From assembly GCA_017435865.1 (NCBI GenBank), contig JAFSEF010000119.1, forward strand, positions 1 to 36,781: a stretch of DNA of 36,781 nucleotides. The letters run 5' to 3'. Numbering within the stretch: position 1 is the stretch's first letter; every line of letters starts with the position of its first letter. Under the pieces are notes generated by a model. That model was not told the origin of the DNA. It saw nothing but the letters and a program-made list of their open reading frames with translations, and did no database searches. A program made the translations under genes and the position numbers. This DNA comes from Clostridia bacterium (lineage in GTDB: Bacteria > Bacillota > Clostridia > Oscillospirales > Acutalibacteraceae). This document shows positions 7,033 through 36,554 of this stretch, one piece after another.

Positions 7033-7070
7033 TATTAAAAATATTTTTAAATTTGTTTGAAGGCGATAGT

Positions 7071-9539
7071 ATGAAATATTGTTATCACTGTATGTCCCCC
7101 AAAGACGGTGCGGTTTGTGCGGCCTGCAACAAAGCAGATCCCGAGTCAGTTCCTGCCCACCGTCTGCAACCGGGTACAATCCTCAACGGTCGTTTCATGA
7201 TCGGCACAGCCCTCGGTGAAGGTGGTTGCGGCATTACCTACATCGGACGGGATACCAATCTTGATATCAAGGTCGCCATAAAGGAATTTTACCCCAACGG
7301 TTTTGCAAACCGCAACAATACCGTTTCCATGGAAGTCACCCACAACACGGAAGAGAAAAAGAACTTTTTTGAAAAAGGCAGAAAAGACTTCCTGAAAGAA
7401 GCACGCATTCTTGCAAAATTCTCGGGAGAAGCCGGCATTGTGGATGTGCGTGACCATTTTGAAGCCAACAACACCGCCTACATTGTCATGGAATACCTCG
7501 AAGGAACGGATCTTCGCGGCTACTTGCGGCAAAAAGGCAAGCTGTCCCCGGAAGAAACCATTGACCTGCTGCTGCCTGTTATCAGATCGCTTGAAAAAAT
7601 CCACAAAGACGGTCTCATTCATCGCGACATCAGCCCCGACAACATCCGCATTGTCGGCGGTATGGTCAAGCTCATTGACTTCGGTGCTGCACGCGACATT
7701 GCCTCTGTCACCAACAAGAACAGCCTTTCGGTCATGCTCAAACCGGGGTATGCCCCGATGGAACAATACAGCCGCAAAGGCAAACAGGGTTCCTGGACAG
7801 ATGTGTATGGTCTTTGTGCTACCATTTACAAATGCATCACAGGTATCACGCCCGAAGATGCCACCGACCGCATTCAGGCAGACGAACTGAAAAAGCCGTC
7901 CGAACTCGGTTGCAACATCACACCTACCTTTGAAAAAGCATTGCTCAAAGGGTTAAGCGTATCTGTCGAAAACCGTATAAAAACCGTATCGGAACTGATG
8001 GATGCGATTGACGGTAAAACAGAAATAAGTGATTTTAATGCGGATGATAAAACCATTTTTATTCCCGAAGATGAAAAAACAATCATAGAAACCGAAAACT
8101 CGAAAACAATTTCAACATACGCTGTTACATCTGTTCCATATGTACATGACACTCCCAATAACAAAAAAAATTCAAAAAAAACATTGCTCACAATAGTTGC
8201 GATTATAGTCTTTTTGATACTGACTGCCAGTGTGTTGCCGTTTATCTTTTCGGAACAAGAAACAATCAGCAATAAACCAAAAACAACCGAACCGATTAGT
8301 GAAAATGATACTGTACTCAATATTTATGTGCCTGATGAAATACTTTCCGAGACAAATGTGCCCATTGCAACAACACAACCCACAACACAACCCACAACAC
8401 AACCCACAACACAACCCGCAACACAACCCGCAACACAACAGGCAACAACTGTCTCTGTTTCCTCTGCAACAACAACCGCTACTACTCCTGTTACTGTTGC
8501 AGAACCTGTCAACACAACCGCTACTACTCCTGTTACTGTTGCAGAACCTGTCAACACAACCGCTACCCCTGTCATTACAACTACAAAACCCGTTACCACA
8601 TCTGCAGCTCCCATTACCACAACCATTCAGAAAGTAACAGTCATTGACTCAGGTTCCTGTGGTACCAATATCCTTTGGCAGCTCGATGATGCAGGATTAC
8701 TGAAAATTTCAGGCAGCGGAACAATGAGCAATTACACGGATGACACTCCTGCACCGTGGTATGATTACAATGAAGCAATAACAGAAGTAACGCTGTCAAG
8801 CGGCATTACCTCCATCGGTGATTATGCATTTTATAACTGTGAAGCAATCCGTTCCGTGGCCATCCCATCCGGTATAATCTCTATTGGTGCCTTTGCTTTT
8901 AATGGTTGCGATGCACTTGCATCCGTTTCCCTGCCGTCAAGCCTAAATAGCATTGACAAACTGGCATTCGGTGGCTGTGACATTCTGAAAAACATCACAA
9001 TTCCCGCAAACGTGTCAACACTCGGTGAGTTTGTTTTCTATAAGTGTTTTGCCTTACAGTCCATCACCGTTGAAGCTGCCAATGCGAACTACAGTTCCAA
9101 AGACGGTGTGCTTTATAACCAATCCCAAACCGTTCTGATTTGCTATCCGGCAGACAAAGCGGACAAAGAATTTGAAATTCCAGCATCTGTGAATACCATT
9201 GAAGATTTTGCGTTCATTTCCTGCAACAATCTGCATGAGCTGACATTTAACAGCAACACCCACATCACAGAAATCGGTGCAAACTCTTTCATGTCCTGTA
9301 TTTCTCTGCAAAAAGTTAAACTTCCGGAAACAGTAACATTCATCGGCGAATCTGCTTTCAACGGTTGTCTGAATATGAATACCATTTATTTGCCGACAAG
9401 TTTAAAAACCATTGACATCAATGTTTTCCTGGGATGTACTTCCCTGAATACGGTCGAATACAGCGGTTCCTCTTACCAATGGCAAAACATTTCCATCGGC
9501 ACAAACAATGATAATCTTATCAATGCCTTCAACAGATAA
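7071..9539 (+). CDS. Membrane Ser/Thr protein kinase with zinc ribbon and extracellular BspA-type LRR domain
   Basis: An 822-residue transmembrane kinase. A zinc ribbon (C4, C7, C16, C19) precedes a Hanks-type kinase domain (about 39-313): glycine loop GEGGCG (50-54), K71 in VAIKEF, HRDISPDN at 184-191, and DFGAAR from D203. The HRD-I-SPDN loop marks a Firmicutes clade of such kinases. Residues 325-340 (DDKTIF, DEKTII) look like autophosphorylation or FHA-binding sites (inference). One membrane helix spans about 370-394. Outside lies a Thr/Pro/Gln stalk with TQPT repeats and two perfect 14-residue TTATTPVTVAEPVN repeats, then a BspA-like LRR_5 domain from about residue 540 with motifs such as ITSIGDYAFYNCEAI. 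This domain probably senses an external ligand. ATG 7071 has GAAGG seven bases upstream. Monocistronic, with its own promoter and terminator. Confidence 0.93.
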   Translation: MKYCYHCMSPKDGAVCAACNKADPESVPAHRLQPGTILNGRFMIGTALGEGGCGITYIGRDTNLDIKVAIKEFYPNGFANRNNTVSMEVTHNTEEKKNFFEKGRKDFLKEARILAKFSGEAGIVDVRDHFEANNTAYIVMEYLEGTDLRGYLRQKGKLSPEETIDLLLPVIRSLEKIHKDGLIHRDISPDNIRIVGGMVKLIDFGAARDIASVTNKNSLSVMLKPGYAPMEQYSRKGKQGSWTDVYGLCATIYKCITGITPEDATDRIQADELKKPSELGCNITPTFEKALLKGLSVSVENRIKTVSELMDAIDGKTEISDFNADDKTIFIPEDEKTIIETENSKTISTYAVTSVPYVHDTPNNKKNSKKTLLTIVAIIVFLILTASVLPFIFSEQETISNKPKTTEPISENDTVLNIYVPDEILSETNVPIATTQPTTQPTTQPTTQPATQPATQQATTVSVSSATTTATTPVTVAEPVNTTATTPVTVAEPVNTTATPVITTTKPVTTSAAPITTTIQKVTVIDSGSCGTNILWQLDDAGLLKISGSGTMSNYTDDTPAPWYDYNEAITEVTLSSGITSIGDYAFYNCEAIRSVAIPSGIISIGAFAFNGCDALASVSLPSSLNSIDKLAFGGCDILKNITIPANVSTLGEFVFYKCFALQSITVEAANANYSSKDGVLYNQSQTVLICYPADKADKEFEIPASVNTIEDFAFISCNNLHELTFNSNTHITEIGANSFMSCISLQKVKLPETVTFIGESAFNGCLNMNTIYLPTSLKTIDINVFLGCTSLNTVEYSGSSYQWQNISIGTNNDNLINAFNR
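8371..8443 (+). repeat. 12-base tandem repeats encoding TQPT units
   Basis: About six 12-base units of the type ACACAACCCACA encode consecutive TQPT/TQPA tetrapeptides in the extracellular stalk of the kinase. Units differ at one or two bases. Confidence 0.85.
8472..8555 (+). repeat. Two perfect 42-base tandem repeats in the kinase stalk
   Basis: Positions 8472-8513 and 8514-8555 are identical and encode TTATTPVTVAEPVN twice; a partial third copy starts at 8556. Identity at the DNA level points to recent duplication by slippage. Length changes keep the frame, so the stalk can vary. Confidence 0.9.
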
Positions 9540-19595: not shown

Positions 19596-19649
19596 GAAAA
19601 TATGCAGACGGAGCAAACAGACTCTCGCTGCCTGAGGAGAGAAAAAAGA

Positions 19650-22600
19650 ATGAAAAACAGGAAAGAAACTGTTTACACCATCGCAACCGCTCACCTTGAC
19701 ACTTCATGGCTGTGGCTTCTGGAGCAGACCATCGACGATTATCTGCCCGATACCGTAAAGCGAAATCTGGCTTTTATGAAAAAGTATCCTGCCTACAAGT
19801 TCAATTTTGAGGGCAGCTACCGCTATGAACTCATCAAGGAATACCACCCTGCTTTGTATGAAAAAATGAAAGAAGCCATCCGCACGGGACAATGGAATGT
19901 CTGCGGCTCGTGCTACGAAAACGGGGACGTCAACATTCCGTCACCCGAAGCACTCATCCGCAACATCCTGTACGGCAACTCCTTTTTTGAAAAAGAGTTC
20001 GGTGTGAAATCAAATGACATCTTTCTGCCCGATTGTTTCGGCTTCGGCAAAGCACTGCCGTCCGTTGCGGCACACTGCGGACTCAACGGGTTTTCCACAG
20101 GCAAACTGTTCTGGGGCAGCAGCGTTCCGATTCCCTTTGACACCGGCAGGTGGGTCGGTGCAGACGGCAAAGGTATTTTTGCAGCCCTGATGCCGTTTTC
20201 CTACACAACCGCATTCAAGGATGTACGCCAAAACAAACGCATCCTTGAAAAAATGGCAGATAACAAAAAGAAAAATATGCCCGGGTTCACCCTTGCTTAT
20301 CACGGCAACGGTGACAGAGGCGGTGCACCGTACAAAGGCTCTGTAAAAAGTGTCATCAAGGCACAGAATGAGAACGCAACGCACGATACGCAGATCCTGT
20401 CTGCCTCAACAAATGAATTTTTCGATATGCTCGATGCTTTACCCGAAGCCGAAAAACAGAAGCTTCCCGTTTATGACGGCGAATTTCTGCTGACAGCTCA
20501 CGGTGCAGGCAGCTACACCTCCCGTACGGTCACAAAACGCTGGAACAAACGCTGCGAATTGCTCGCCGATGCTGCCGAACGGTTTTGTGCAGCAGCTTTT
20601 GTCAACGCACTTGCAGCATATCCGCAGTACAAACTGGATACAGCATGGAAGCAGGTCATTGCCCACCACTTCCACGATGACATCACAGGCACTTCCTTTG
20701 AGGAATGTTACAAGAGGAATCACAATGACTATGTGCAGGCACTCAACACATTCTCGGTTGAACTGACCGCAGCCTGCCATGCACTTGTCAATGCCATGGA
20801 CACGTCTTTTGTAAAGGGGACGGCAGTCGCAGTCGCCAACCCTCTGCAGGGGGCAACAGACAGACTCTGCACCGCAAAAGTGCACCTGACAGATGCAGAT
20901 GCGTACCACACCGTGTATGACAAAGACGGCAACATCTTACCCTCCCAGACAAAAAGACTGTCCGATACCGAATGCGAAGTCATCTTTACCGCTGCAGTGC
21001 CGTCCTGCGGAATTGCTGTTTTTGATGTTCAACCTGCACAAACGGCGTACACAACAGACACACAACTGCACATCACACAAAACAGCATCGAAAACAAATA
21101 TCTGCGTGTACAGCTCAATGACAACGGAGAAATTGAGAGCATCTGTGACAAAGTCCTCGGCAAAGAACTGTTCAGCGGTCCCATTCAACACACATTGCTG
21201 CCCGATGTACACAGCTTTGATTGGCCTGCATGGGAAATCAGATACGAAGACATCTGTGCAAAACCTTTTACACAGGTACAAAAGAAATCCGTCACGATCG
21301 AAGAATGCGGACCTGCTCTGTGCACACTGAAAATTGTCAGCAAAGCAGGCAATTCCGTTTTCACACAGCTTGTTTCTCTGGGCAGCGAAAGCCGTTTTGT
21401 ATCCGTTTACAACGAAACCGACTGGCGTGAAGAAGCAGCTCTGCTGAAAGCCACATTCTCCCTCACCGCCAAAAATGAAAAAGCGGACTACGATACAGGC
21501 ATCGGCTGTGTCAGCCGCGGTACAAATACAAAAACTCTGTACGAAGTTCCTGCACAGAAATGGGCAGGCATCCGTGATACGGACAACGAATTCGGAGTCA
21601 GTGTGTTCAGTGATGCAAGAACAGGTTGGGACAAACCCGATGCAAACACCCTGCGACTGACCTGCGTGCACACTCCCCTTGCGAACTATCGCTGGGAATG
21701 CTCGCAGCACATCATGGACATGGGGCTCAACCGCTATTCGTATGCCGTTATGGGACACAACGGAAATGACAACGCTGTCAGTGCATATGCAGATGCTTTC
21801 TGTATGCCCGTATACAGCTTTGTGACCGATGCCCACAAAGGCACATTGGAACCTGCATACAGCTTTTTCAGACTCAACAACGAAAATGTCCGTGTACTTG
21901 CCCTCAAAAAAGCACTCGATTCCGACAACATCATCCTGCGTGTAGCCGAGTGCACCGGAAAACCGATTGCAAATGTGCAGGCAAGCTTTGCTGCACCTGT
22001 CCGCAAAGCTGCAGAAGTGCGTGGTGACGAAGTGCTTTTGCAGGAAATGAACGCCGAAAACGGCAATCTATGTTTTGACCTGCAGAAAAATGAAATCAGA
22101 AGCTTTGCCCTGGCATTTGACAAAAAAGAAATCATCTGCAAGGATGCACCGATTGCACTTCCCTGCAATGCGGTCGGCATCACCGATGACAACAACCGTG
22201 CTCTCTCCACATTGCCGCAATCCGTCAGCATTCCGCGTGAACTTCTGCCCGAAAAGCTGCTGTCAGGCGGTGTCACATACCATTTTGAAACCACAAACAA
22301 AAACTGCCTGCGTTGCGACGGCTCCGTCCTGCACATCGGCAGCGGATATGACAGTGTCTGCCTGCTGCTGACCTCACTTGACGGCGACAAACAGGTCACT
22401 TTCACAGTCGGCGACCAAAAACACACCGTCCTCATTCCCGATGCGCACGAAGCACTCGGTCACTGGGATTTGTTGCAGCAGGGACTGACGGGTTACATCA
22501 AGCCTGTTCCGCAAGCATTCACCCTGTCGCACACGCACCACAAAGACGGCAACCTGACCGCAAAACAGTTTTATCTTTTTGCGGCAGAAATACCGCTTGC

Positions 22601-22949
22601 AGGGCAAGAAGAAATCAGATTGCCCGATGACAAGCAAATTGTTCTTTTTGCAGCCACGGCAATACGCAGCAGCACCGTGTTCTTAAAAGGCTGCGACCAC
22701 TCCGACACCCTCACAAAACGCACCTTTGACTACACATTTTCCGACTATGCAACAAAACATATGCTGCCTAACAAAGCGGAACGATTCCTGAATCGCATTG
22801 TGGACCACACCCGTACTTTCAACATCAAGGCAGGCGAGTTCTGCAACAAATATGCCGTCAATGAAATTTACTTCATCCTGCGGCACACCAAAGACAAGCT
22901 CTTTTACAACAAAGCGGTGCAACACATCACCGACCAACGCAAACAATGA
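19650..22949 (+). CDS. Family GH38 alpha-mannosidase
   Basis: A 1099-residue retaining alpha-mannosidase, probably cytoplasmic since no signal peptide is seen. The zinc ligands H15 and D17 lie in TAHLDTSWLWL; GSCYENGDVNIPSPEALIRN (86-105) is the second conserved block; the nucleophile is probably D128 in FLPDCFGFGKALP; and HHFHDDITGTSFEE (339-352) carries the third metal ligand. The remaining 700 residues form the usual GH38 middle and C-terminal beta domains. The family releases mannose from alpha-mannosides such as N-glycans and yeast mannan. ATG 19650 has AGGAGA nine bases upstream; the earlier ATG at 19602 lies just past the lipase terminator and is rejected. Located in a stretch with several glycan enzymes. 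Confidence 0.93.
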   Translation: MKNRKETVYTIATAHLDTSWLWLLEQTIDDYLPDTVKRNLAFMKKYPAYKFNFEGSYRYELIKEYHPALYEKMKEAIRTGQWNVCGSCYENGDVNIPSPEALIRNILYGNSFFEKEFGVKSNDIFLPDCFGFGKALPSVAAHCGLNGFSTGKLFWGSSVPIPFDTGRWVGADGKGIFAALMPFSYTTAFKDVRQNKRILEKMADNKKKNMPGFTLAYHGNGDRGGAPYKGSVKSVIKAQNENATHDTQILSASTNEFFDMLDALPEAEKQKLPVYDGEFLLTAHGAGSYTSRTVTKRWNKRCELLADAAERFCAAAFVNALAAYPQYKLDTAWKQVIAHHFHDDITGTSFEECYKRNHNDYVQALNTFSVELTAACHALVNAMDTSFVKGTAVAVANPLQGATDRLCTAKVHLTDADAYHTVYDKDGNILPSQTKRLSDTECEVIFTAAVPSCGIAVFDVQPAQTAYTTDTQLHITQNSIENKYLRVQLNDNGEIESICDKVLGKELFSGPIQHTLLPDVHSFDWPAWEIRYEDICAKPFTQVQKKSVTIEECGPALCTLKIVSKAGNSVFTQLVSLGSESRFVSVYNETDWREEAALLKATFSLTAKNEKADYDTGIGCVSRGTNTKTLYEVPAQKWAGIRDTDNEFGVSVFSDARTGWDKPDANTLRLTCVHTPLANYRWECSQHIMDMGLNRYSYAVMGHNGNDNAVSAYADAFCMPVYSFVTDAHKGTLEPAYSFFRLNNENVRVLALKKALDSDNIILRVAECTGKPIANVQASFAAPVRKAAEVRGDEVLLQEMNAENGNLCFDLQKNEIRSFALAFDKKEIICKDAPIALPCNAVGITDDNNRALSTLPQSVSIPRELLPEKLLSGGVTYHFETTNKNCLRCDGSVLHIGSGYDSVCLLLTSLDGDKQVTFTVGDQKHTVLIPDAHEALGHWDLLQQGLTGYIKPVPQAFTLSHTHHKDGNLTAKQFYLFAAEIPLAGQEEIRLPDDKQIVLFAATAIRSSTVFLKGCDHSDTLTKRTFDYTFSDYATKHMLPNKAERFLNRIVDHTRTFNIKAGEFCNKYAVNEIYFILRHTKDKLFYNKAVQHITDQRKQ

Positions 22950-22990: not shown

Positions 22991-23028
22991 AGCCGGCCAC
23001 GGACAATCCCGTGACCGGCTCTTCTTTT
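22991..23028 (+). terminator. Terminator after the mannosidase gene
   Basis: AGCCGG (22991-22996) pairs with CCGGCT (23015-23020) and CACGG with CCGTG inside, with one mismatch, followed by a broken T-run. It lies between convergent genes. Confidence 0.78.
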
Positions 23029-23071
23029 GTTTTGTCTTTTGTTATGCTTTCGTAAATGCACGACAGTTTAC

Positions 23072-23904
23072 TTATTTCAATATCTCCAGACCGACCGCAG
23101 CACGCAGAATCAGTCGGGCATCGGCAGCTTCGAGTTGACCGTTTTTGTCGGCATCGGCAGCCTTGGTTTGTGCTTCGGTGAGTGTTTCCAACTTGACCGC
23201 AGCACGCAGTGCAAGACGTGCATCGGCAGCTTCGAGCTTGCCGTTGTTGTCGACATCACCGAGGATAAATCCGAAGATTGCAAAATGAATGGTCACCTGA
23301 TCGGAAAAAGTGTCTTCCTGCATGGCAATTTTGTTCCACATTTCTTCGCTGCCGTCATAGTAAACATCTTTCAGTGCTTGACAACCGGCAAAAGCTGCAT
23401 TGCTGATGCTTGTCACACTGTCGGGAATGGTGACGGTTGTCAGTGCGGCACAGTTGAAAAAGACATTGTCAACAATATTTTTCACCCCTTCGGGAATGAC
23501 AACGACGGAAAGATTTTCACAATATGCAAAAGCTGCTGTTCCGAGGTTGCTCACACTTTCGGGAATTGCAACAGATGTCAACGATTTGCAACCGCAGAAG
23601 GCATCGTCCCCAATACTGATTACACTATCGGCAACGGAGACATCCGTCAACGCAGAGCAATCATAAAAAGCACCGTCAGCAATGTTTGTCACACCGTTTT
23701 CCATGACAACCTTTTTGATCGTATTGTCCCATTTATTCCCGTCTGCCGGACGATAATCTTTCATAGGTCCGGTTCCAGAAATGGTCAGCACACCGTCACT
23801 GTCCTGTGTCCAGGTCAGGTTCTCGCCGCAGGTACCTGCTTTTACGATTGCAGCAGCATCACTGCAACAAGCAGTACAGACAAAGCTTTTTTGAACGATA
23901 TCAT
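23072..23904 (-). pseudogene. Secreted BspA-type LRR protein with type I dockerin, frameshifted after the signal peptide
   Basis: ATG 23904 follows AGGAGG by six bases and begins a convincing signal peptide, ISFKKALSVLLVAVML, but that frame stops at TAA 23845-23843. The mature protein continues in another frame (AIVKAGTCGENLTWTQDSDG), which is open to 23072 but has no start codon before an internal ATG at 23791. One base lost or gained near 23848-23860 would join them. The body is BspA-like LRR_5 repeats (VTNIADGAFYDCSALTDVSV and relatives). The last 63 residues are a type I dockerin with two calcium-binding repeats, LGDVDNNGKLEAADARLALR and ADADKNGQLEAADARLILR. It would bind a cohesin on a scaffold or the cell surface. 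True decay and an assembly error both remain possible. Confidence 0.8.
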
Positions 23905-24021
23905 AAACATCCTCCTCAATTAAACAGCAAAATCATACTATTACTTTACTATTATAAGATAAATAAATCAATACATTTTCCATTTATTTCTCGTTTTAAA
24001 TATTACCATGTGCAGAATGCG

Positions 24022-24052
24022 GAAAAAAAAGCTGCACCGCAAAGGGTGCAGC
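24022..24052 (-). terminator. Terminator of the exported metallophosphoesterase gene
   Basis: GCTGCACC (24031-24038) pairs with GGTGCAGC (24045-24052); eight A residues at 24023-24030 give the U-run on the minus strand. Confidence 0.92.
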
Positions 24053-24100
24053 AAGATTGCTTTTTTACATTATATTTACATGTCGTTTGCTTTGTCAGGA

Positions 24101-25102
24101 TTATTCCGTAACGAGGTCGATGGTGTAAACTGCATTGGTGAACCATTTGTTGGTGATGAAGTTACGGGGTCTGACAACGACCTGATCTTCATATACTTCC
24201 ATCTGCATACCTGTGGCGGACCAAGGGTAACCGAAGGAATTAACAATACCGTAGGTGGGCAGAGAGATGTAAGTAACACCGTTTTCCTGTTCGACATTTG
24301 CAAAACCGGTGACTTCGGCTGCGGCTTCACTCTTGATGCCGCCGTGGATGTGACCGGAGATGTAGAACACGTTTTCGTATTTTTCCATCACAGTCTTGAC
24401 GTCGTTTTTGTCAAGTTCAATACCGCTGTCGGGATACACGATTTCCTGTCCGTTCATACCGTCCACAGGCCAATGGCAGACAACAAACGCAGGCGAACCG
24501 TCGGCGGTGGCACGGGCAAGCTCGCTGTCAAGGAAAGCAAGCTGCGTTTCGGAAATGTCCATACCGTCCCAGTGACCGCCGTCGATGACTTCGTCACCGA
24601 GAACGATGAAGGTATAGCCGTTGAGCTCATAGCTGTAATAATTATCGTTGGCTTCGATGCCGAGATATTCATTGTTGTAACGGATAAAGTTTGCCTTGGC
24701 TTCTTCACGGGTGATATCGGTCACATCACGGTCACCGACATGGCCGATGTCGTGGTTGCCTGCCGCGGAGATGACAGGTACAGTGCTGTGCTTGGAAAGA
24801 ATCTCATAATATTTTGCAAGGGACGGCTCGTCTGCATAGTTTGTCAGGTCGCCTGCGATGATAACACCGTCGATTTCTGCCTTTGCACCGTTGAGGTTGC
24901 GAAGACCTGCGACCATGAATGCCTGACGGAAGAGTTCTTTTTCTTCAATATGTGTGTCGGACAGCATTTCGACCGTCAGCAGACAATCGTCACGGACATT
25001 GTCGATAACAGGCAGTTCAAAGCCTGCATAGGGCAGAACTGTCAGGAAAATAGCAAGCAAAAAGGATGTGAAATTGGCCATAATGGATTTAAAAACCGAC
25101 AT
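24101..25102 (-). CDS. Exported calcineurin-like metallophosphoesterase
   Basis: A 333-residue protein with an N-terminal signal or anchor helix (about 8-30) and a calcineurin-like phosphoesterase domain. The two-metal motifs are present: D49 and H51 (LSDTHIEE), D85 (IAGDLTNY), N116-H117-D118 (AAGNHDIGH), a later CHWP histidine and GHIHGG. The enzyme acts outside the membrane on phosphomonoesters or diesters; its substrate cannot be read. GAGGGAA lies six bases before ATG 25102. It is expressed alone: its own promoter lies at 25155-25183 and a strong terminator at 24022. Confidence 0.9.
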   Translation of the reverse strand: MSVFKSIMANFTSFLLAIFLTVLPYAGFELPVIDNVRDDCLLTVEMLSDTHIEEKELFRQAFMVAGLRNLNGAKAEIDGVIIAGDLTNYADEPSLAKYYEILSKHSTVPVISAAGNHDIGHVGDRDVTDITREEAKANFIRYNNEYLGIEANDNYYSYELNGYTFIVLGDEVIDGGHWDGMDISETQLAFLDSELARATADGSPAFVVCHWPVDGMNGQEIVYPDSGIELDKNDVKTVMEKYENVFYISGHIHGGIKSEAAAEVTGFANVEQENGVTYISLPTYGIVNSFGYPWSATGMQMEVYEDQVVVRPRNFITNKWFTNAVYTIDLVTE

Positions 25103-25119
25103 TTGTATTCCCTCGCTTC

Positions 25120-25159
25120 AAAATCAAAACTTCTTTGTTTACAAAGATAATTTGATTTT
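25120..25159. repeat. 40-base dyad over the metallophosphoesterase transcription start
   Basis: AAAATCAAA (25120-25128) pairs with TTTGATTTT (25151-25159), and CTTTG (25133-25137) with CAAAG (25142-25146), with symmetric 4-base internal loops. It overlaps the -10 hexamer, so it may be an operator or a 5' stem-loop of the transcript. Confidence 0.6.
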
Positions 25160-28471: not shown

Positions 28472-30874
28472 ATGGATACCTTTGCAAAGAGATTTCAGAT
28501 TGAATGTTCCCCGTTGGCACCTGCCGAACAGGTTCTTGTGTACGGTAACACAAGATTCACCGTCCTTACGGACTGCCTGCTGCGTGTTGAAAAACAGGAT
28601 GAAGAAATGTTCTGCGACGAACCGACACAAAGTGTATGGTTCCGCGATTTTGCACATCCGTCCTTCACGGTTGCCGAAGTGGCCGACACCGTTCAGATCA
28701 GAACCGCAAAAGTCACTTTTGTATATTCATTGTGTGAAAACAAAATGCTGCGTATTGTCCTGCCGGGCGGCAAAAACGTAACCGATTTCAAAAAGGGCAA
28801 CCTCAAAGGCACCTGCCGTACACTGGACATCACAGCAGGTATCATCACACTGACCGACGGTGTTTGTTCAAGAAACGGCGTGGCATTGCTTGATGACAGC
28901 ACCACACTTGTCATGAAAACCGACGGCAGCATCCTGCCGCGTGACAACAAGGGCAATGACGTTTATTACTTTGCTTACGGCAACGATTACATCGGAGCCA
29001 CCACCGACCTGTACAAGCTGACAGGTAAAGTACCGCTGATTCCGCGTTATGCTCTGTCCAACTGGTGGAGCCGTTACAAGGCATACACACAGGATGAATA
29101 CCTCAACCTGATGGATATGTTCAAAGAAGAGGAAATTCCCGTTACCGTTGCAACGGTGGACATGGACTGGCACTGGGTCAACATCAGAAAGAAGTTCGGC
29201 AAAGACAGCCACAAACTCTCCATGCACAGAAACTTCATGGAATATGTCTACGACGTATGGTCAACAGGCTGGACGGGTTACAGCTTCAACACCGAACTCT
29301 TCCCCGATCCCGACGGCTTCCTCAAAAAACTCAAGGACGACGGCTACCGCGTGACCTTCAACATCCATCCGTCCATGGGTGTTCGCTGGTTCGAAGATCA
29401 GTATGTGGAAATGTGTCAGGCCATGGGCATGAATCCGATGGAAAAGAAGCCTGTTGCATTTGACATCACCGATAAAAAGTTCACCGAAAACTACTTTGAT
29501 ATCCTGCACCGTCCCTTTGAAGAAAAGGGGGTCGATTTCTGGTGGATCGACTGGCAGCAGGGCAAACATACCGCTGTCAAAGGACTGGACCCGCTGTGGG
29601 CACTCAACCACTATCACTTCCTTGACAATGCAAAACACGGCAACCGCCCGCTGATTCTTTCCCGTTTCTGCGGTGCCGGCAGCCAGCGCTATCCTCTCGG
29701 GTTCAGCGGCGACACCACACAGACCTGGAAGAGTCTTGACTTCCAGCCCGGATTCACCGCAACCGCATCCAACATTGCCTACCCGTGGTGGAGCCATGAC
29801 ATCGGCGGTCATTGCATGGGCAAAAAAGATGACGAACTGTATGTGCGTTGGGTACAGCTCGGTGTGTTCAGCCCCGTTATGAGACTGCACTCCACCAACA
29901 ATGATTTTGCAGGCAAAGAACCCTGGAACTACAGCGGTCCTGCCGGAAAAGCCGCAACCGATGCACTGCGTCTGCGTCACAAACTCCTGCCCTATATCTA
30001 CACCATGAACTACCGTACACACAACGATTGCAGAGCCATCTGCGAGCCGATGTACTACGCATATCCAGAAGAAGAAAACGCCTACACACACAAGAACGAG
30101 TTTTTCTTCGGTACAGAACTGATCGTTGCACCCATCACCGAACACACCCACGTACGCACCAACCTCGCAGGTGTGGATGTGTGGATTCCCGAAGGCAGAT
30201 ACACCGACATTTTCACCGACCGCATCTATGAAGGCAAGCAGACCGTCCGTATGTTCCGCGACATCGACAACATTCCCGTACTTGCCAAAGCAGGTGCCAT
30301 CATTCCCATGAGCACCAACGATCGCAAAAATGACTGCACCAACCCTGCAGAATCGGACATTCTCATTTACAGAGGCAACAACACCTTTGTAATGTATGAA
30401 GACGACGGCGAGTCCCTCAATTACAAGAACGGTGCCTTTTTCAAAACTGCATTCACCGTCTGCGAAGAAGGCAATAATGTTACTTTCACCGCCGAAAAAG
30501 CAGAAGGCGACAGCAGCGTTGTGCCTGTCAACAGAACCTGGCATTTCATGTTCAAAGACATTGTCAGTGCCGATGTCATTGTCACAATCGGCGGCAAGCG
30601 TGCCAAAACCGAACTTACAAAATGCGGCAAAGGCATCTGCATGAGCGTTACTGCCGGTGCAGACGAAAAAATCAAGGTCATGCTCAGCAACTGCGTTGCC
30701 CTCACCAACGAGGACGAAAAGGTACTGATGACAAGAACCATCTCCAAATACCAGATGTCCACCGACCGCAAGGGCTTCATGTTCGGCAGCATTGTAAAGG
30801 GTAAAAAGAAAATCAGCAGCGTCGCCGAAGAATTTGCAGGACCTCTCGAAGAAATCAAGAAATTATACAGATAA
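28472..30874 (+). CDS. Family GH31 alpha-glycosidase
   Basis: An 800-residue retaining alpha-glycosidase, probably cytoplasmic as no signal peptide is seen. An N-terminal beta-sandwich (about 1-180) precedes the (beta/alpha)8 barrel. The nucleophile is D360 in DFWWIDWQQG and the acid/base D414 in GFSGDTTQTW; other family blocks are PRYALSNWWSRYKAYT (191-206) and PWWSHDIGGHCMGK. A beta-rich C-terminal domain starts near 590. GH31 covers alpha-glucosidases, alpha-xylosidases and others; the WWIDWQQG type is common in gut glucosidases, but the substrate is not certain. AAGGAG lies seven bases before ATG 28472. Monocistronic, closed by a perfect 15-bp terminator stem. Confidence 0.94.
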   Translation: MDTFAKRFQIECSPLAPAEQVLVYGNTRFTVLTDCLLRVEKQDEEMFCDEPTQSVWFRDFAHPSFTVAEVADTVQIRTAKVTFVYSLCENKMLRIVLPGGKNVTDFKKGNLKGTCRTLDITAGIITLTDGVCSRNGVALLDDSTTLVMKTDGSILPRDNKGNDVYYFAYGNDYIGATTDLYKLTGKVPLIPRYALSNWWSRYKAYTQDEYLNLMDMFKEEEIPVTVATVDMDWHWVNIRKKFGKDSHKLSMHRNFMEYVYDVWSTGWTGYSFNTELFPDPDGFLKKLKDDGYRVTFNIHPSMGVRWFEDQYVEMCQAMGMNPMEKKPVAFDITDKKFTENYFDILHRPFEEKGVDFWWIDWQQGKHTAVKGLDPLWALNHYHFLDNAKHGNRPLILSRFCGAGSQRYPLGFSGDTTQTWKSLDFQPGFTATASNIAYPWWSHDIGGHCMGKKDDELYVRWVQLGVFSPVMRLHSTNNDFAGKEPWNYSGPAGKAATDALRLRHKLLPYIYTMNYRTHNDCRAICEPMYYAYPEEENAYTHKNEFFFGTELIVAPITEHTHVRTNLAGVDVWIPEGRYTDIFTDRIYEGKQTVRMFRDIDNIPVLAKAGAIIPMSTNDRKNDCTNPAESDILIYRGNNTFVMYEDDGESLNYKNGAFFKTAFTVCEEGNNVTFTAEKAEGDSSVVPVNRTWHFMFKDIVSADVIVTIGGKRAKTELTKCGKGICMSVTAGADEKIKVMLSNCVALTNEDEKVLMTRTISKYQMSTDRKGFMFGSIVKGKKKISSVAEEFAGPLEEIKKLYR

Positions 30875-31238: not shown

Positions 31239-34200
31239 ATGAAGAATCGAAAAATGAGCAAATCTGTTCTTTGTGTCTTGCTTTCCGTGCTCATGGTGTT
31301 TACTGTTTTCGCTCCGATTACAGCCTTTGCAACATCAGTGGATGAAAGCAAACTCCAGGAAGGCACGTTGCTGACGTCAAAAACGGAATATGCGGTAGCT
31401 CCCGGTGTAACCGAAGCGCGTATTACGACCAATGACACTACCGGCCTTAATCAGGTTACGGCCTATGTGCTTGAAGTGGATATGGCTAACCCCTATACAA
31501 GCATCATTGCCGGTTACAAAGATGATAACGGCAGCAATCACGGTTTCGCAAGAGTTCGTGATCAGGCATATTCTGCAGAAGCAAAGCGTGGCGTCAATGT
31601 TGTCGGCGGCATCAATGCAGACTTCTTCAATATGCAGACCGGCGAAACACAGGGTGCCCTTGTTATGAACGGAACTGTTTATCATGCAGCATCCGACAGA
31701 CCGTATTTCGGTGTTACCAAAGACGGTCAAGCCGTTATCAGCACCGGTAAACTGACTGATGATATCGTTGAAGCTGTCGGTGGTCTTTGCCTGCTCGTTC
31801 AGAACGGTGAAGTCACACAGGATGCATACACCAACGGTTATGGTGCAATTCTGAATCCCAGAACTGCTGTCGGTATCAAGGCTGACGGAACGGTGCTTAT
31901 GTATGTTTGCGACGGCAGACAGGCTCCTTATTCCATCGGTCAGTATTTTACAGACCTTGCACACAGTCTGGTTGCTCTTGGTTGCGAAACTGCACTGTGT
32001 CTTGACGGTGGCGGATCCACAACATTCGTTTCACAGCACGAAGGTTCCGCAGAACTTGTCTGCAGAAACAGACCTTCCGACCAGGTTGAAAGAGAAGTTT
32101 CTTCTTCTCTGCTTGTTTGCTCCTCTGCAAAGCCTTCCGGCGTGTTTGATCATGCAACGATTGCTCCCAATAACAATATTTATACTCCCAACGCAGTTGT
32201 GGAATTCACTGCAGTTGGCGTTGACTCTGCCGGTTATGAAGCTGCTCTTCCTGCTGACGGTAAGTTTGAGCTTGCTGATGATTCTTTCGGTACCATTACC
32301 GATGACGGTGTTTTTACCTCCAACGGAAAAATCGGTACTGTTACTGTGAATTATGTTTCCGGCGGTGCTGCATGCGGTACTGTTTCTGTTGAAGTGCAGA
32401 TCCCCGATACACTTTATGTCGGCAATGCAGAACAGGCTGTCGGCCCCGGTGTCACCACCGATTTCGGTCTTGTTGCAAAATACAATAACAGAGATGTCAT
32501 TATGCATGACGGCGACATCAACTGGACCATTGTTGATTCCATCACAAATGATAATCTGAACGGTGTTGCAGGTACATTCAATGGTCTGACCTTTACAGGT
32601 GCTGAAGAGAATGCATATAATACATTCATCACAGCAACCCTTGCATGCAATGCAGCACTTTCTCAGAAGCTGACTGTTTTCATCGGTTCCAAGCAGACCA
32701 TGCTCTATGACTTTGAATATGTCACCGGTGAAGAAAATAAGGATGCTGAAAATTACATTCCGTCCTTTGAACTGCCTGTTAACGGCGCAAACTGGCTTAC
32801 CGCAAATGGTTACAGCGGCTACAGAGGCAGAGCCGAAGAACTCTACAATGAAGGATATCCTCTTTACATGTGGCCCAATGCTGCTGTCAGCAATGATACG
32901 GTCGCGATTGATGTCGTTTCTGCTGCAGACGGTGAGCCCGTCCGTTTTGGCGACAAGTCCCTTCGTATCTCCTTTGACTATTCCTCTTATAACTATTCTT
33001 CCAATGCAAACTTCTATCTTCGTACAACCGTTCCTGCTTATGCATTCGAAGGTTCTCCCACTGCCATCGGCGTATGGGTTTATGCTCCCGAAGGCACATC
33101 CAATTATCGTTTGTATCTGAACTGTGCTCGCGGCATGACAGTTGAAGCGATTGAAAAGGGTATTGCACACACGGCTCAGTCCTATCAGTGTGTCACAGAC
33201 AAAGAACCCGGTGTGCTCGGTATCAATTGGACCGGTTGGAAATATCTTGAATTTGACCTGACCGGTGTTGAAACAAGTACCAGTGACTCCAATATCGGTC
33301 CTGCTTATGCTCCCTTCGGCCTCAATCCCGGTGCCGGTATCTTCTGGATTTCCTATCAGCCTGCACACATGGGCCAGCCCACAGCTGATACCATTTATAT
33401 TGACGATATTACCCTGATTTACGGTGCCAATACTTCGGATACCACGAACCCCACTGTAAATTATGTCGGCGATATGACTTCCGAAATTGTTGACGGTGAA
33501 ACTGTTTTCACTTCCAACACCAACACATTCAAAGCTGTTTATGCAGATACTGAAGACAAATACATGACCGGCATCAACGATGCAGCTACAAAGATGTACA
33601 TCGACGGTGTTGATGTCACAGATAAGTGCTACATCAATGAAGGCGACGATGAAATTTATTTCTATGATGCAGTTCTTGCAGACGGCGTTCATGTTATTGA
33701 AATTGAAGTTGCTGATATCTTCGGCAACGTAACAACCGATATGCGCTACTTCACCATTGACAGTAAGTCTGATGATACGGAAGTTTCCGTTGTTGCAGAT
33801 TCTGCTCCCGTTCTCGGTGAAGATTACACTATTTCTGTTGTCACAAACAATGCTGCAGATGTTCTTGCTGCAGATGTAGTTGTCAAAGTTCTTTCCGACT
33901 ACACAAGCTATTGGAGAAATACAAGTGTTGTTCCTGCTGAAAACTATGAACTTGACGGCGAAGCTGTTTATAACAGCATTCGTGATACTCTGACTTTCAA
34001 GGTCGTCAGAAAAACTGATGCAGATGCAACCAAGGATACCGGTGTGATTGCAAACATCGTAACTGCTGTTCCCGCCGATGTACCTGATTCTCTTGCGGTC
34101 ACCCACAGAATTGCAAAGGGTGCACTTACCCTTGCAAGTGAAAATGCAGAAAAGTATACTGCAGCGTTCTCCGGTAAGATCACCAATGTAACGATTGCTC

Positions 34201-36554
34201 CCTTTGCAGTGAGTTCCGATGTTATGGTTGTTGGCTCTGCAGGTGGATACATCTACGTTAAGGACAACGACGGCAATCCTGTTGAAGGTGCAAATGTTTA
34301 TACCGCTGAATCAGAATCGATCGGTGTGACAGATGCAGAAGGTAAGGTGTTTACCGCTGCTTATGTTGCTGATGTTGTCAGCTTCTCGATTTATGCAGAA
34401 AAAGAAGGCACTCTTTCCTTCATTTACAAGTCCCAGAGCCTGAAGCCCGGTGCAGATGAAAACGGTGCTCCCGCTTATGTAATTCTCAATGCTGCACAGG
34501 ATGCTGCAACCCAGCAGAGCATTTCCTGGATGGCAAATCCGCTTGCAAGCGAAGCCAAGGCAATTGTCAAGTATGCAACCAAGGCTTCTTATGATGCAGA
34601 CGGCGAAGCAGCATTTGTTGAAGTTGAAGGCAACAGCTATCTTGATACCATGGCTGCTACCGGCAACATTGCAGAAAACTACGCTGTCAGATTCAACGCT
34701 GTAACCATTACCGGTCTTACTGAGAATACAGAATATTCTTACATTGTCGGTGATGGTGAAAAATGGTCCGGTGTTAAGACATTCAAAACAGAAAAAGACG
34801 ATATTGATACCAACTTCATCGTCTTCGGTGATATGCAGAACAAAGACACATCCAATGCAGACGCAATCTTCGCTGCTCTTGATGCAAGTGATGTAAATTA
34901 TAGCTTCGGCATTCAGACCGGTGACGCAGTTGACAATGCAGGTTCTTATGCATACTGGTCTGCTGTTGGTAATGCTTTCTCCGGTGAATACAGTGGCACA
35001 ATCGATATGGTTCGTGTCCTTGGTAACCATGAATACACTGGTGATGCCAAGGGTATCAACGCAGCTCATTATTACAATCTTCCCGGCACAACCGACGAAG
35101 CTCCGTTGGCATATTCCGTTGAATACGGCAATGTCTATGTTGCCGTTCTCGATTATCTGCCCAATACCAATGATGTGCAGGCTGCTGCTGACTGGCTTGT
35201 TGAAGACGCTTCAAAATCCAATGCAATGTGGAAAGTTCTCACCCTGCATCAGCCGCCCTATTACACCAATATTGGTGGCGGTTCCACAAGAGCCATGATG
35301 GATATTCTTGTCGGTGCAGTTGACGAAGCAGGTATTGATGTTGTCTTCTCCGGTCATGACCACACCTATGCAAGAAGCTTCCCCGTAACAGCCGGTGAAA
35401 AGAATGAAAACGGTACCGTTTACTTCATCTGTGCTGCTACCAATCCGGAAAAGGATTATCAGCTTACAAAGAACCCCGCTATCCATGAGGTCGCTTCCGG
35501 GGACTATCACTCTATTTATCTCACTGTCAGCACAACAGACACTGAAATGTCTATCAAGGTTTACAACTACGATGGTCAGGATCACGCACTCTTTGACTCC
35601 TGCACAATCACTCGTGAAGTCACTTGTACCGAAAGCGGTCACGACAATGTTTGTGACGGCGAAAACCTGATCTGTAAGGTCTGCGGTTACACAAAGCCGG
35701 TCGGTAACTTTACCGGTTTTGTTGCCAATGCAACAAGCGGCAAGAATATGTATCTCCTTGGTGGTACAGTAATGACAGGTTGGTTCGTTCTTGGTGAAGA
35801 GAACTATCTGTTTGATGAAAACGGCGAAGCCATGAGCGGCACAGTCGAATACGAAGGCTTTACCTACGAATGCGATGAAAACGGTAAGCTCAAGATGGGT
35901 GCTCTTGTTCAGAATGAAGACAAAACATATTCCTATTATATCAACGGCGTTTCACAGGAAGGCTGGTTCTACCTGAATGATAGCTGGTATTACTTCAGAA
36001 GAGCCGACCACAAGACCTATATCGGTTCGCTGATTGTCTACAAGGATGAACACAGCCCCGGCATGATTTATAAATTCGGTGCAGACAGCAAACTTGTCAG
36101 AGGCGCATTTGTCGAAACAACGGACGGCACATCTTATTATTGGGGTCCCGATGTTGCAACCGGCTTGATTACAATTGACAACAAGCTGTATTATTTCAGT
36201 CCCGAAAATACTTACATGCTGAAGAACGACAGCGTCGAAATTGACGGAATTGTTTATGCATTCGGTGCAGATGGTGTCTTTGCTCACTACGGTGCACATA
36301 TCGATGAAGATGGCGATGAAAAAGGCCTTTGCGACATCTGCTTCCCGAAACCTGTAAGAAAGCTCGGTGACATTGACGGCGACTATAGAGTTTCTTCCTC
36401 GGATGCTCGTCTTGCATTGCGTTTTTCTGTTAATCTTGAAACATTGACAGAAAAACAGATTCTCTTTGCAGATGTTGATAAGAGCGGTACGGTCGATTCG
36501 TCTGATGCTCGTCTGATTCTTCGTGCAGCTGTCGGACTTGAAAAACTTTCCTGA
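31239..36554 (+). CDS. Secreted phosphodiester glycosidase (NAGPA) - metallophosphatase fusion with wall-binding repeats and dockerin
   Basis: A 1771-residue surface protein. Residues 1-31 are a signal peptide ending AFA. Residues about 70-300 form a NAGPA-type phosphodiester glycosidase domain (GINADFFN at 124-131, NPRTAVGIKADGTVLMYV, CLDGGGST with D256), the fold of the human mannose-6-phosphate uncovering enzyme. Beta-rich modules follow (about 300-1080), including galactose-binding- and carboxypeptidase-regulatory-like ones. An FN3-like segment (about 1090-1190) leads to a purple-acid-phosphatase-like domain with D1198, D1229, N1263-H1264, H1337, H1373 and H1375 (FSGHDHTY). After a Cys-rich linker come cell-wall-binding repeats (about 1490-1690; GWFYLNDSWYYF) and a type I dockerin (1709-1771). 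AAAGGA lies ten bases before the ATG. Probable action: remove a sugar from a phosphodiester, then the exposed phosphate (inference). T-ending codons dominate, unlike its neighbours. Confidence 0.9.
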   Translation: MKNRKMSKSVLCVLLSVLMVFTVFAPITAFATSVDESKLQEGTLLTSKTEYAVAPGVTEARITTNDTTGLNQVTAYVLEVDMANPYTSIIAGYKDDNGSNHGFARVRDQAYSAEAKRGVNVVGGINADFFNMQTGETQGALVMNGTVYHAASDRPYFGVTKDGQAVISTGKLTDDIVEAVGGLCLLVQNGEVTQDAYTNGYGAILNPRTAVGIKADGTVLMYVCDGRQAPYSIGQYFTDLAHSLVALGCETALCLDGGGSTTFVSQHEGSAELVCRNRPSDQVEREVSSSLLVCSSAKPSGVFDHATIAPNNNIYTPNAVVEFTAVGVDSAGYEAALPADGKFELADDSFGTITDDGVFTSNGKIGTVTVNYVSGGAACGTVSVEVQIPDTLYVGNAEQAVGPGVTTDFGLVAKYNNRDVIMHDGDINWTIVDSITNDNLNGVAGTFNGLTFTGAEENAYNTFITATLACNAALSQKLTVFIGSKQTMLYDFEYVTGEENKDAENYIPSFELPVNGANWLTANGYSGYRGRAEELYNEGYPLYMWPNAAVSNDTVAIDVVSAADGEPVRFGDKSLRISFDYSSYNYSSNANFYLRTTVPAYAFEGSPTAIGVWVYAPEGTSNYRLYLNCARGMTVEAIEKGIAHTAQSYQCVTDKEPGVLGINWTGWKYLEFDLTGVETSTSDSNIGPAYAPFGLNPGAGIFWISYQPAHMGQPTADTIYIDDITLIYGANTSDTTNPTVNYVGDMTSEIVDGETVFTSNTNTFKAVYADTEDKYMTGINDAATKMYIDGVDVTDKCYINEGDDEIYFYDAVLADGVHVIEIEVADIFGNVTTDMRYFTIDSKSDDTEVSVVADSAPVLGEDYTISVVTNNAADVLAADVVVKVLSDYTSYWRNTSVVPAENYELDGEAVYNSIRDTLTFKVVRKTDADATKDTGVIANIVTAVPADVPDSLAVTHRIAKGALTLASENAEKYTAAFSGKITNVTIAPFAVSSDVMVVGSAGGYIYVKDNDGNPVEGANVYTAESESIGVTDAEGKVFTAAYVADVVSFSIYAEKEGTLSFIYKSQSLKPGADENGAPAYVILNAAQDAATQQSISWMANPLASEAKAIVKYATKASYDADGEAAFVEVEGNSYLDTMAATGNIAENYAVRFNAVTITGLTENTEYSYIVGDGEKWSGVKTFKTEKDDIDTNFIVFGDMQNKDTSNADAIFAALDASDVNYSFGIQTGDAVDNAGSYAYWSAVGNAFSGEYSGTIDMVRVLGNHEYTGDAKGINAAHYYNLPGTTDEAPLAYSVEYGNVYVAVLDYLPNTNDVQAAADWLVEDASKSNAMWKVLTLHQPPYYTNIGGGSTRAMMDILVGAVDEAGIDVVFSGHDHTYARSFPVTAGEKNENGTVYFICAATNPEKDYQLTKNPAIHEVASGDYHSIYLTVSTTDTEMSIKVYNYDGQDHALFDSCTITREVTCTESGHDNVCDGENLICKVCGYTKPVGNFTGFVANATSGKNMYLLGGTVMTGWFVLGEENYLFDENGEAMSGTVEYEGFTYECDENGKLKMGALVQNEDKTYSYYINGVSQEGWFYLNDSWYYFRRADHKTYIGSLIVYKDEHSPGMIYKFGADSKLVRGAFVETTDGTSYYWGPDVATGLITIDNKLYYFSPENTYMLKNDSVEIDGIVYAFGADGVFAHYGAHIDEDGDEKGLCDICFPKPVRKLGDIDGDYRVSSSDARLALRFSVNLETLTEKQILFADVDKSGTVDSSDARLILRAAVGLEKLS

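What the first reader, a model, noticed from the sequence alone, without database searches (positions are those of the whole stretch)
31239..36554. One secreted polypeptide with a phosphodiester glycosidase and a phosphatase
The sequence shows an NAGPA-type domain (GINADFFN, CLDGGGST) followed in the same chain by a complete two-metal phosphatase (D1198, D1229, NH1263-1264, H1337, GHDH). In animals, uncovering GlcNAc-1-P-6-mannose exposes mannose-6-phosphate. A fusion that also removes the phosphate would strip capped phosphoglycans such as yeast phosphomannan, host phospho-N-glycans or teichoic acid in two consecutive steps, while wall-binding repeats and a dockerin hold it at the surface. 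A GH38 mannosidase lies about 8 kb upstream. I do not know of a described enzyme with this domain order.
Basis: partly seen in the sequence, partly recalled or inferred. Interest (0 to 1): 0.82.

Follow-up and report, generated by a model that had tools for sequence, protein, structure and literature searches.

The report
Secreted sugar-phosphate uncapping enzyme plus phosphatase
A gut bacterium makes one long secreted protein that carries two enzymes, one that should clip a sugar off a phosphate link and one that should remove the phosphate; the same pairing occurs in other bacteria and has been mentioned in print, but I found no report that tests what it does.

Summary
The ORF at 31239-36554 (+, 1771 aa) has, in order: a signal-like N-terminus, NAGPA, a conserved jelly-roll-like module, Ig-like parts, a purple-acid-phosphatase-type phosphoesterase, wall-binding repeats and a dockerin. 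It is not unique: 20 of 42 loci fetched from public genomes carry both enzymes in one frame, as do two plasmid records and at least 13 of 300 family genomes, the window's included. A 2024 paper on B. subtilis ShfP says that such phosphoesterases may be fused to NAGPA. Core residues are kept in at least 20 of 21 aligned fusions, so both domains look live. A different phosphoesterase is joined to NAGPA in other genomes. The GH38 link finds no support (0 of 46 loci, in the DNA held); a GH31 gene directly upstream recurs in 2 of 46. Taxa and contexts point to bacterial surface phosphoglycans rather than yeast or host glycans. Two-step action on one substrate is plausible but untested.

The parts
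31239..36554 (+). Whole gene, 1771 aa, NAGPA to dockerin
31239..31334 (+). Signal-peptide-like N-terminus (about residues 1-32, basic then hydrophobic, ...AFA)
   Evidence: read from the sequence; no predictor run
31596..32117 (+). NAGPA / phosphodiester glycosidase domain (residues 120-293)
   Evidence: Pfam PF09992 1e-35; place also; 3ohg, 6pku matches
32694..33473 (+). Conserved jelly-roll-like module (residues 486-745, motif INWTGWKY); motif also in NAGPA-only, phosphatase-only and GHL10 proteins
   Evidence: no Pfam or PDB match; the fold name is inference
33516..33788 (+). Ig-like region (Big_13 called in 14 of 22 and 13 of 21 aligned members, not in this protein itself)
34473..34790 (+). 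Pur_ac_phosph_N (FN3-type) domain, residues 1079-1184
   Evidence: Pfam PF16656 4.6e-12
34812..35369 (+). Two-metal calcineurin-like / PAP-type phosphoesterase, residues 1192-1377 (GDMQ, GDAVD, GNHE, H1337, GHDH)
   Evidence: Pfam PF00149; profile match to PAPs 1.6e-20
35760..36293 (+). Choline-binding / cell-wall-binding repeats (about residues 1508-1685)
36363..36518 (+). Dockerin type I
28472..30874 (+). GH31 glycosidase gene directly upstream, same strand; pair also in L037 and L096
27248..28372 (-). Separate metallophosphoesterase gene
24101..25102 (-). Separate metallophosphoesterase gene
19602..22949 (+).

Best explanation
A secreted, surface-attached two-enzyme protein for taking apart phosphate-linked glycans of bacterial cell surfaces (its own wall or capsule polymers, or those of neighbours). 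The NAGPA domain hydrolyses a sugar-1-phosphate diester and frees the sugar, leaving a phosphomonoester on the acceptor; the PAP-type domain then frees inorganic phosphate. The conserved jelly-roll-like and Ig-like parts between them hold the polymer or space the domains, and wall repeats plus dockerin fix the enzyme at the surface. Shown: domain order, conserved core residues, spread of the fusion, surface-protein architecture. Inferred: that both domains are active, that they act one after the other on the same molecule, and the substrate class.
For: Domains and order. NAGPA N126, D128, D256-S260 and phosphatase D1198, Q1200, D1229, N1263, H1264, H1337, H1373, H1375 are kept in at least 20 of 21 fusions aligned to the window protein. 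The pairing recurs over Clostridia, Bacillales and Lactobacillales. NAGPA is also followed by a Metallophos domain without Pur_ac_phosph_N in Cohnella, Paenibacillus, Caloramator, Metabacillus and one family genome (Pfam in 5 proteins); four such phosphatase domains form a clade (99/97) outside the first type, and their NAGPA domains also lie apart, more weakly (92/93). Surface context: polysaccharide genes around the Pseudobutyrivibrio copy, a GDPD gene directly downstream in one congener, GHL10-dockerin and SLH-cohesin genes downstream in Sedimentibacter, a GHL10 protein with the same middle motif. The own genome has one Glyphos_transf place and many metallophosphoesterases.
Against: Flanking genes differ between lineages. 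In the same genome a paralogue keeps NAGPA, repeats and dockerin but lacks middle and phosphatase, and one of the four genomes of the genus (G261) showed only separate short NAGPA and phosphatase matches: the steps are separable. Middle plus phosphatase occurs without NAGPA, in Bacteroidales for example, and such domains nest among the fusion's phosphatases. The fusion is patchy: at E <= 1e-40 only one of 397 other genomes over the phylum gave both halves, a second being likely by motif. NAGPA is promiscuous in fusions (prok-TelC, PMC12419801). The trees are unrooted, so the number of joinings is open.
Confidence: 0.45

Rival explanations
1. Two enzymes with separate jobs on the same surface: NAGPA removes glycosyl-1-phosphate decorations while the ShfP/PhoD-like phosphoesterase cuts phosphodiesters (teichoic acid, eDNA, lipid head groups); co-location, no sequential chemistry.
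For: The ShfP paper predicts this kind of role for ShfP (section 7). Asp replaces the purple-acid-phosphatase Tyr. Each enzyme occurs without the other but with the same middle motif.
Against: The two domains stay together over several orders and NAGPA is joined with two phosphoesterase types.
Confidence: 0.3
2. Uncovering and dephosphorylation of yeast phosphomannan or host phospho-N-glycans.
For: NAGPA resembles the uncovering enzyme; a GH38 gene lies nearby; two close relatives come from sheep and deer gut samples (L037, L039).
Against: GH38 not seen near any related locus in the DNA held (0 of 46); fusion present in Bacillales and lactobacilli; polysaccharide-gene context in Pseudobutyrivibrio.
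Confidence: 0.08
3. A ShfP-like developmental or signalling protein of spore formers.
For: ShfP is a forespore protein; the fusion lies upstream of a gerA-type operon in Fictibacillus (Pfam for L051; same clusters in L052 and L054) and some 5 kb from one on a Metabacillus plasmid.
Against: Present in Levilactobacillus, which does not form spores (recalled); the gerA neighbourhood was seen only in these Bacillales.
Confidence: 0.1
4. One or both domains are inactive binding modules.
For: Some NAGPA relatives without this phosphatase have changed core motifs, e.g. LDGGNS in L019 and L027.
Against: Core residues kept in at least 20 of 21 fusions.
Confidence: 0.07

Closest known systems
ShfP (YvnB) radiation of secreted calcineurin-like phosphoesterases (PMC11488536)
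   Same: Secreted, Ig-like domains, Pur_ac_phosph_N FN3 and wall-binding modules; the paper states that members may be fused to NAGPA (section 7 read)
   Different: B. subtilis ShfP as described has LTD plus seven Ig domains and no NAGPA; no NAGPA fusion was assayed in the section and passages I saw
NAGPA / DUF2233 phosphodiester glycosidases (uncovering enzyme, bacterial 3ohg)
   Same: NAGPA profile 1e-35, N/D/DGGGS motifs
   Different: Here joined to a phosphatase and surface anchors; substrate unknown
Purple acid phosphatases
   Same: Pur_ac_phosph_N plus Metallophos order; profile match 1.6e-20
   Different: Asp in place of the motif-2 Tyr, GDxQ in motif 1
PhoD / GlpQ teichoic acid hydrolases
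   Same: Phosphoester hydrolysis at the Gram-positive surface; PhoD has an FN3 plus calcineurin-like domain (as told in PMC11488536)
   Different: No glycosidase domain (recalled); only 2 of 21 members of alignment A2, the window included, match PhoD, best E 0.0059
NAGPA + prok-TelC surface proteins of Bacillota (PMC12419801)
   Same: NAGPA in a two-enzyme surface protein with Ig and wall-binding parts (one text passage seen)
   Different: The second enzyme is a lipocone (TelC), not a phosphatase

Membership tests
NAGPA (PF09992) phosphodiester glycosidase | Profile match over the curated cut-off | tested here: met
   123.9 bits against 25
NAGPA (PF09992) phosphodiester glycosidase | Core motifs shared with solved members (N..FF, RTA.G, LDGGGS) | tested here: met
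   Alignments to 3ohg, 6pku, 6u11; the catalytic role of these residues is recalled, the source papers were not held
NAGPA (PF09992) phosphodiester glycosidase | Hydrolysis of a sugar-1-phosphate diester | not testable with these tools
   needs assay
Calcineurin-like two-metal phosphoesterase | Five metal-binding motifs | tested here: met
   GDMQ, GDAVD, GNHE, H1337, GHDH
Purple acid phosphatase (strict sense) | Metal-binding Tyr in GDxxY (role recalled) | tested here: not met
   Asp1232 at that place; Asp in 20 of 21 relatives, Glu in L042
ShfP radiation | Secreted calcineurin-like domain with Pur_ac_phosph_N FN3 and surface-binding domains | tested here: met
   Domains agree with the description read
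ShfP radiation | Phosphoesterase domain groups with ShfP in a tree | not tested
   ShfP sequence not fetched
Cellulosome-type dockerin protein | Dockerin in a genome with cohesins | tested here: met
   47 dockerin places; 5 cohesin places, 4 over the cut-off
Cellulosome-type dockerin protein | Dockerin binds a cohesin | not testable with these tools
   needs experiment

The most novel reading that the evidence does not exclude
A self-contained phosphoglycan-stripping enzyme: one chain whose first site unmasks a phosphomonoester and whose second site, brought near by a shared glycan-binding middle, removes it. It would be a conserved Bacillota route to harvest both sugar and phosphate from sugar-1-phosphate-linked surface polymers, here part of a dockerin-bearing set in a genome unusually rich in metallophosphoesterases.
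Probability: 0.27. Interest if true: 0.68.

Novelty: new member of a known kind. Interest (0 to 1): 0.42.

Why it matters
Sugar-1-phosphate diesters are common in bacterial surface polymers (general knowledge), and enzymes that dismantle them are little studied as far as I know. A recurrent fusion of an uncovering-type glycosidase and a phosphatase gives a ready candidate for such a pathway, with named strains (Fictibacillus, Levilactobacillus, Terrisporobacter mayombei DSM 6539, Longicatena caecimuris DSM 29481) in which it can be tested. It would also help to say what bacterial NAGPA proteins are for.

Tried and rejected
GH38 as a functional partner: not supported, absent near the 46 loci with a match to the fusion and in the earlier check; many of these loci are short, some are the same genome twice, and some hold only NAGPA-only or phosphatase-only relatives. 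Assembly artefact: rejected by recurrence. Conserved operon across the whole family: not found; only genus-level or pairwise links. Identifying the middle by solved structures: no hit for residues 486-745, three chance-level hits for 850-1000, one chance-level hit for the whole middle. First guesses for two neighbour genes were on the wrong strand (23027-23923 + and 24008-25150 +); the genes are 23072-23791 - and 24101-25102 -. Number of independent fusions: the trees separate the two types, but both carry the same middle motif, so one ancestral NAGPA-middle core with an exchanged phosphoesterase is equally possible. Ascertainment: the loci were fetched with six peptide patterns, among them INWTGWKY, NADFFNMQ and FGDMQNKD, so the frequency of the middle motif there is biased, and for loci fetched by the other two so is part of the conservation of those motifs. 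Literature searches for a studied NAGPA-phosphatase protein gave only the ShfP statement among listings and passages seen; the phosphomannan search listed nothing relevant; the DUF2233 and PhoD/GlpQ papers are not held. That GHL10 includes the E. coli peptidoglycan hydrolase DigH is recalled; the DigH paper found does not hold the family names I searched it for.

Full report
Observation. The window holds one ORF of 1771 aa at 31239-36554 +. Pfam finds NAGPA (120-293, 1e-35), Pur_ac_phosph_N (1079-1184), Metallophos (1192-1377), choline-binding repeats and a type I dockerin. The N-terminus reads as a signal peptide (sequence only, no predictor). The NAGPA part matches the solved bacterial DUF2233 protein 3ohg and the uncovering enzyme. 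The phosphatase part matches purple acid phosphatases, weakly alone and clearly with a family profile (6gja 1.6e-20, 2qfp 1.7e-14). It differs from true purple enzymes in having Asp1232 at the Tyr position and GDxQ in the first motif; Asp is there in 20 of 21 relatives and Glu in L042.

Spread. A pattern scan of the genome-contig collection (one genome for each of 84,980 species) gave 42 loci. Of these, 20 loci with 21 ORFs carry NAGPA and the phosphatase in one frame: gut and other Clostridia, Terrisporobacter (two in tandem, L041), Longicatena, Caproiciproducens, Sedimentibacter, Sporolactobacillus, Levilactobacillus (2), Fictibacillus (3), Peribacillus and Paenisporosarcina (2). Two plasmid records have it too (Pseudobutyrivibrio, Metabacillus), annotated 'phosphodiester glycosidase family protein'. 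In 300 genomes of the window's family, the window's own included, I count 13 with both halves in one open frame, read from the listed rows (G000, G003, G025, G043, G076, G080, G170, G187, G190, G205, G242, G263, G289); the list was cut, so this is a lower bound. Of the four genomes of the genus there, three have the fusion; G261 showed only separate short matches. In 398 genomes drawn over the phylum, only G693 besides the window's showed both halves at E <= 1e-40; the G563 frame also bears a NAGPA motif (L081), so it is probably another. The fusion is widespread but patchy.

Conservation. In the 21 ORFs aligned to the window protein, N126, D128, D256-S260, D1198, Q1200, D1229, D1232, N1263, H1264, H1337 and GHDH 1372-1375 are identical in at least 20. 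Exceptions seen: L042 has GDHE and Glu at 1232; L060 is the most divergent. Alignments A3-A5 used 16 rows (the window plus 15 of the 21; L057, L060 and four near-duplicates L047, L050, L051, L052 left out); A2 left out L057. The middle is not an arbitrary linker: residues 486-745 form a module with the motif INWTGWKY, several invariant positions over the 16 rows and 41% mean column identity. It has no Pfam or PDB match. The motif also occurs in proteins with NAGPA but no phosphatase motif (L055, L056, L068, L070, L071; Pfam checked for L056 and L068), with phosphatase but no NAGPA (L058, L059, L061, L062, L064; Pfam checked for L058), and in a Clostridium rhizosphaerae protein whose enzyme is GHL10 (L076). 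These loci were partly fetched through this motif, so only the variety counts, not the frequency. A search of 150 family genomes with the module's profile matched 13, the fusion genomes and weaker relatives among them. I infer a binding role.

A second kind of fusion. In Cohnella, Paenibacillus, Caloramator, Metabacillus and one genome of the window's family, NAGPA and the middle motif are followed by Metallophos without Pur_ac_phosph_N (Pfam for L063, L065, L069, L072 and L122; L066 judged by motif and tree). Four of these phosphatase domains (L063, L065, L066, L069; first motif mostly DxH, last motif GHLH) form a clade (99/97) outside the clade of 21 first-type domains and 6 NAGPA-free ones (97/93). 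L072, L060 and the NAGPA-free L073 sit outside on long or open branches, and NAGPA-free domains nest among the first type. The NAGPA tree separates the two types more weakly (92/93), with L060 on the second type's side. Root and losses are unknown, so I claim no number of origins; but two phosphoesterase types behind the same glycosidase favour a shared purpose.

Context. Directly upstream lies GH31 (28472-30874 +, 364 bp gap). A relative at 53-55% identity lies directly upstream of the fusion in L037 and L096 as well: 2 of the 46 loci with a match to the fusion; GH38 was found in 0 of 46 (many loci are short, some are one genome twice, and some hold only partial relatives). In one congener (L039, the same contig by length as L100) the next gene downstream is a GDPD glycerophosphodiesterase. 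In Sedimentibacter (L044) GHL10-dockerin and SLH-cohesin genes follow. On Pseudobutyrivibrio plasmid pNP95 the gene lies among glycosyltransferases, an O-antigen ligase family protein and acyltransferases, with an IS110 transposase next to it. In Fictibacillus it precedes a gerA-type operon. The own genome (85% complete) has 47 Metallophos places; among 60 family genomes it scored 44 against a median of 7.5, the highest of the 60, though it is also among the largest. It has 47 dockerin and 5 cohesin places, one Glyphos_transf place and no GHL10 match. A paralogue on another contig keeps NAGPA (85%) and the C-terminal repeats with dockerin (83%) but lacks the middle and phosphatase.

What is in print. 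PMC11488536 (section 7 read; [quoted passage not shown] PMC12419801 (one text passage) describes NAGPA with prok-TelC. My searches listed no study of a NAGPA-phosphatase enzyme; the library lacks most subscription journals, and the DUF2233 and PhoD/GlpQ papers were not held.

Judgement. The protein is real, recurrent and very probably bifunctional. Its most likely role is on bacterial surface phosphoglycans, with sugar release followed by phosphate release (0.45). The main rival is two unlinked activities on the same surface (0.3). The mannose-6-phosphate reading has little support (0.08). The kind is known by architecture and, as far as I found, unknown by function, so I score interest at 0.42.

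Noticed in passing
G000 (whole genome of the window): 47 Metallophos places; highest of 60 family genomes (44 scored there, median 7.5), an unusual expansion of phosphoesterases.
   Followed up: partly
G000:C114:39815-43354 -: Frames of 1264 aa on this strand hold two Metallophos places and a dockerin, apparently one protein.
   Followed up: no
L004 517-2394 - (G000:C121): Paralogue of the fusion with NAGPA, wall repeats and dockerin at 83-85% identity but without middle and phosphatase.
   Followed up: partly
L044 9866-17583: Sedimentibacter: fusion with a dockerin-like C-terminus (sequence only), then GHL10-dockerin, then SLH-cohesin; looks like a small surface complex.
   Followed up: partly
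L089 (Pseudobutyrivibrio plasmid pNP95): Fusion gene among surface-polysaccharide genes on a plasmid.
   Followed up: partly
L019, L027; L021, L025, L031, L032, L034, L035: NAGPA relatives without this phosphatase whose core motifs are changed: LDGGNS in the first two, CDGGGS with a changed NxDFF stretch in the others.
   Followed up: no
L078 9059-12516: Kribbia: NAGPA and middle-plus-phosphatase lie in two overlapping frames; left as found.
   Followed up: no
window 7053-9539 +: Protein kinase domain followed by BspA-type leucine-rich repeats in one protein.
   Followed up: no
window 23072-23791 -: Protein with repeats that look leucine-rich (sequence only) and a dockerin.
   Followed up: no
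L041 8514-21613: Terrisporobacter mayombei carries two fusion genes in tandem.
   Followed up: no
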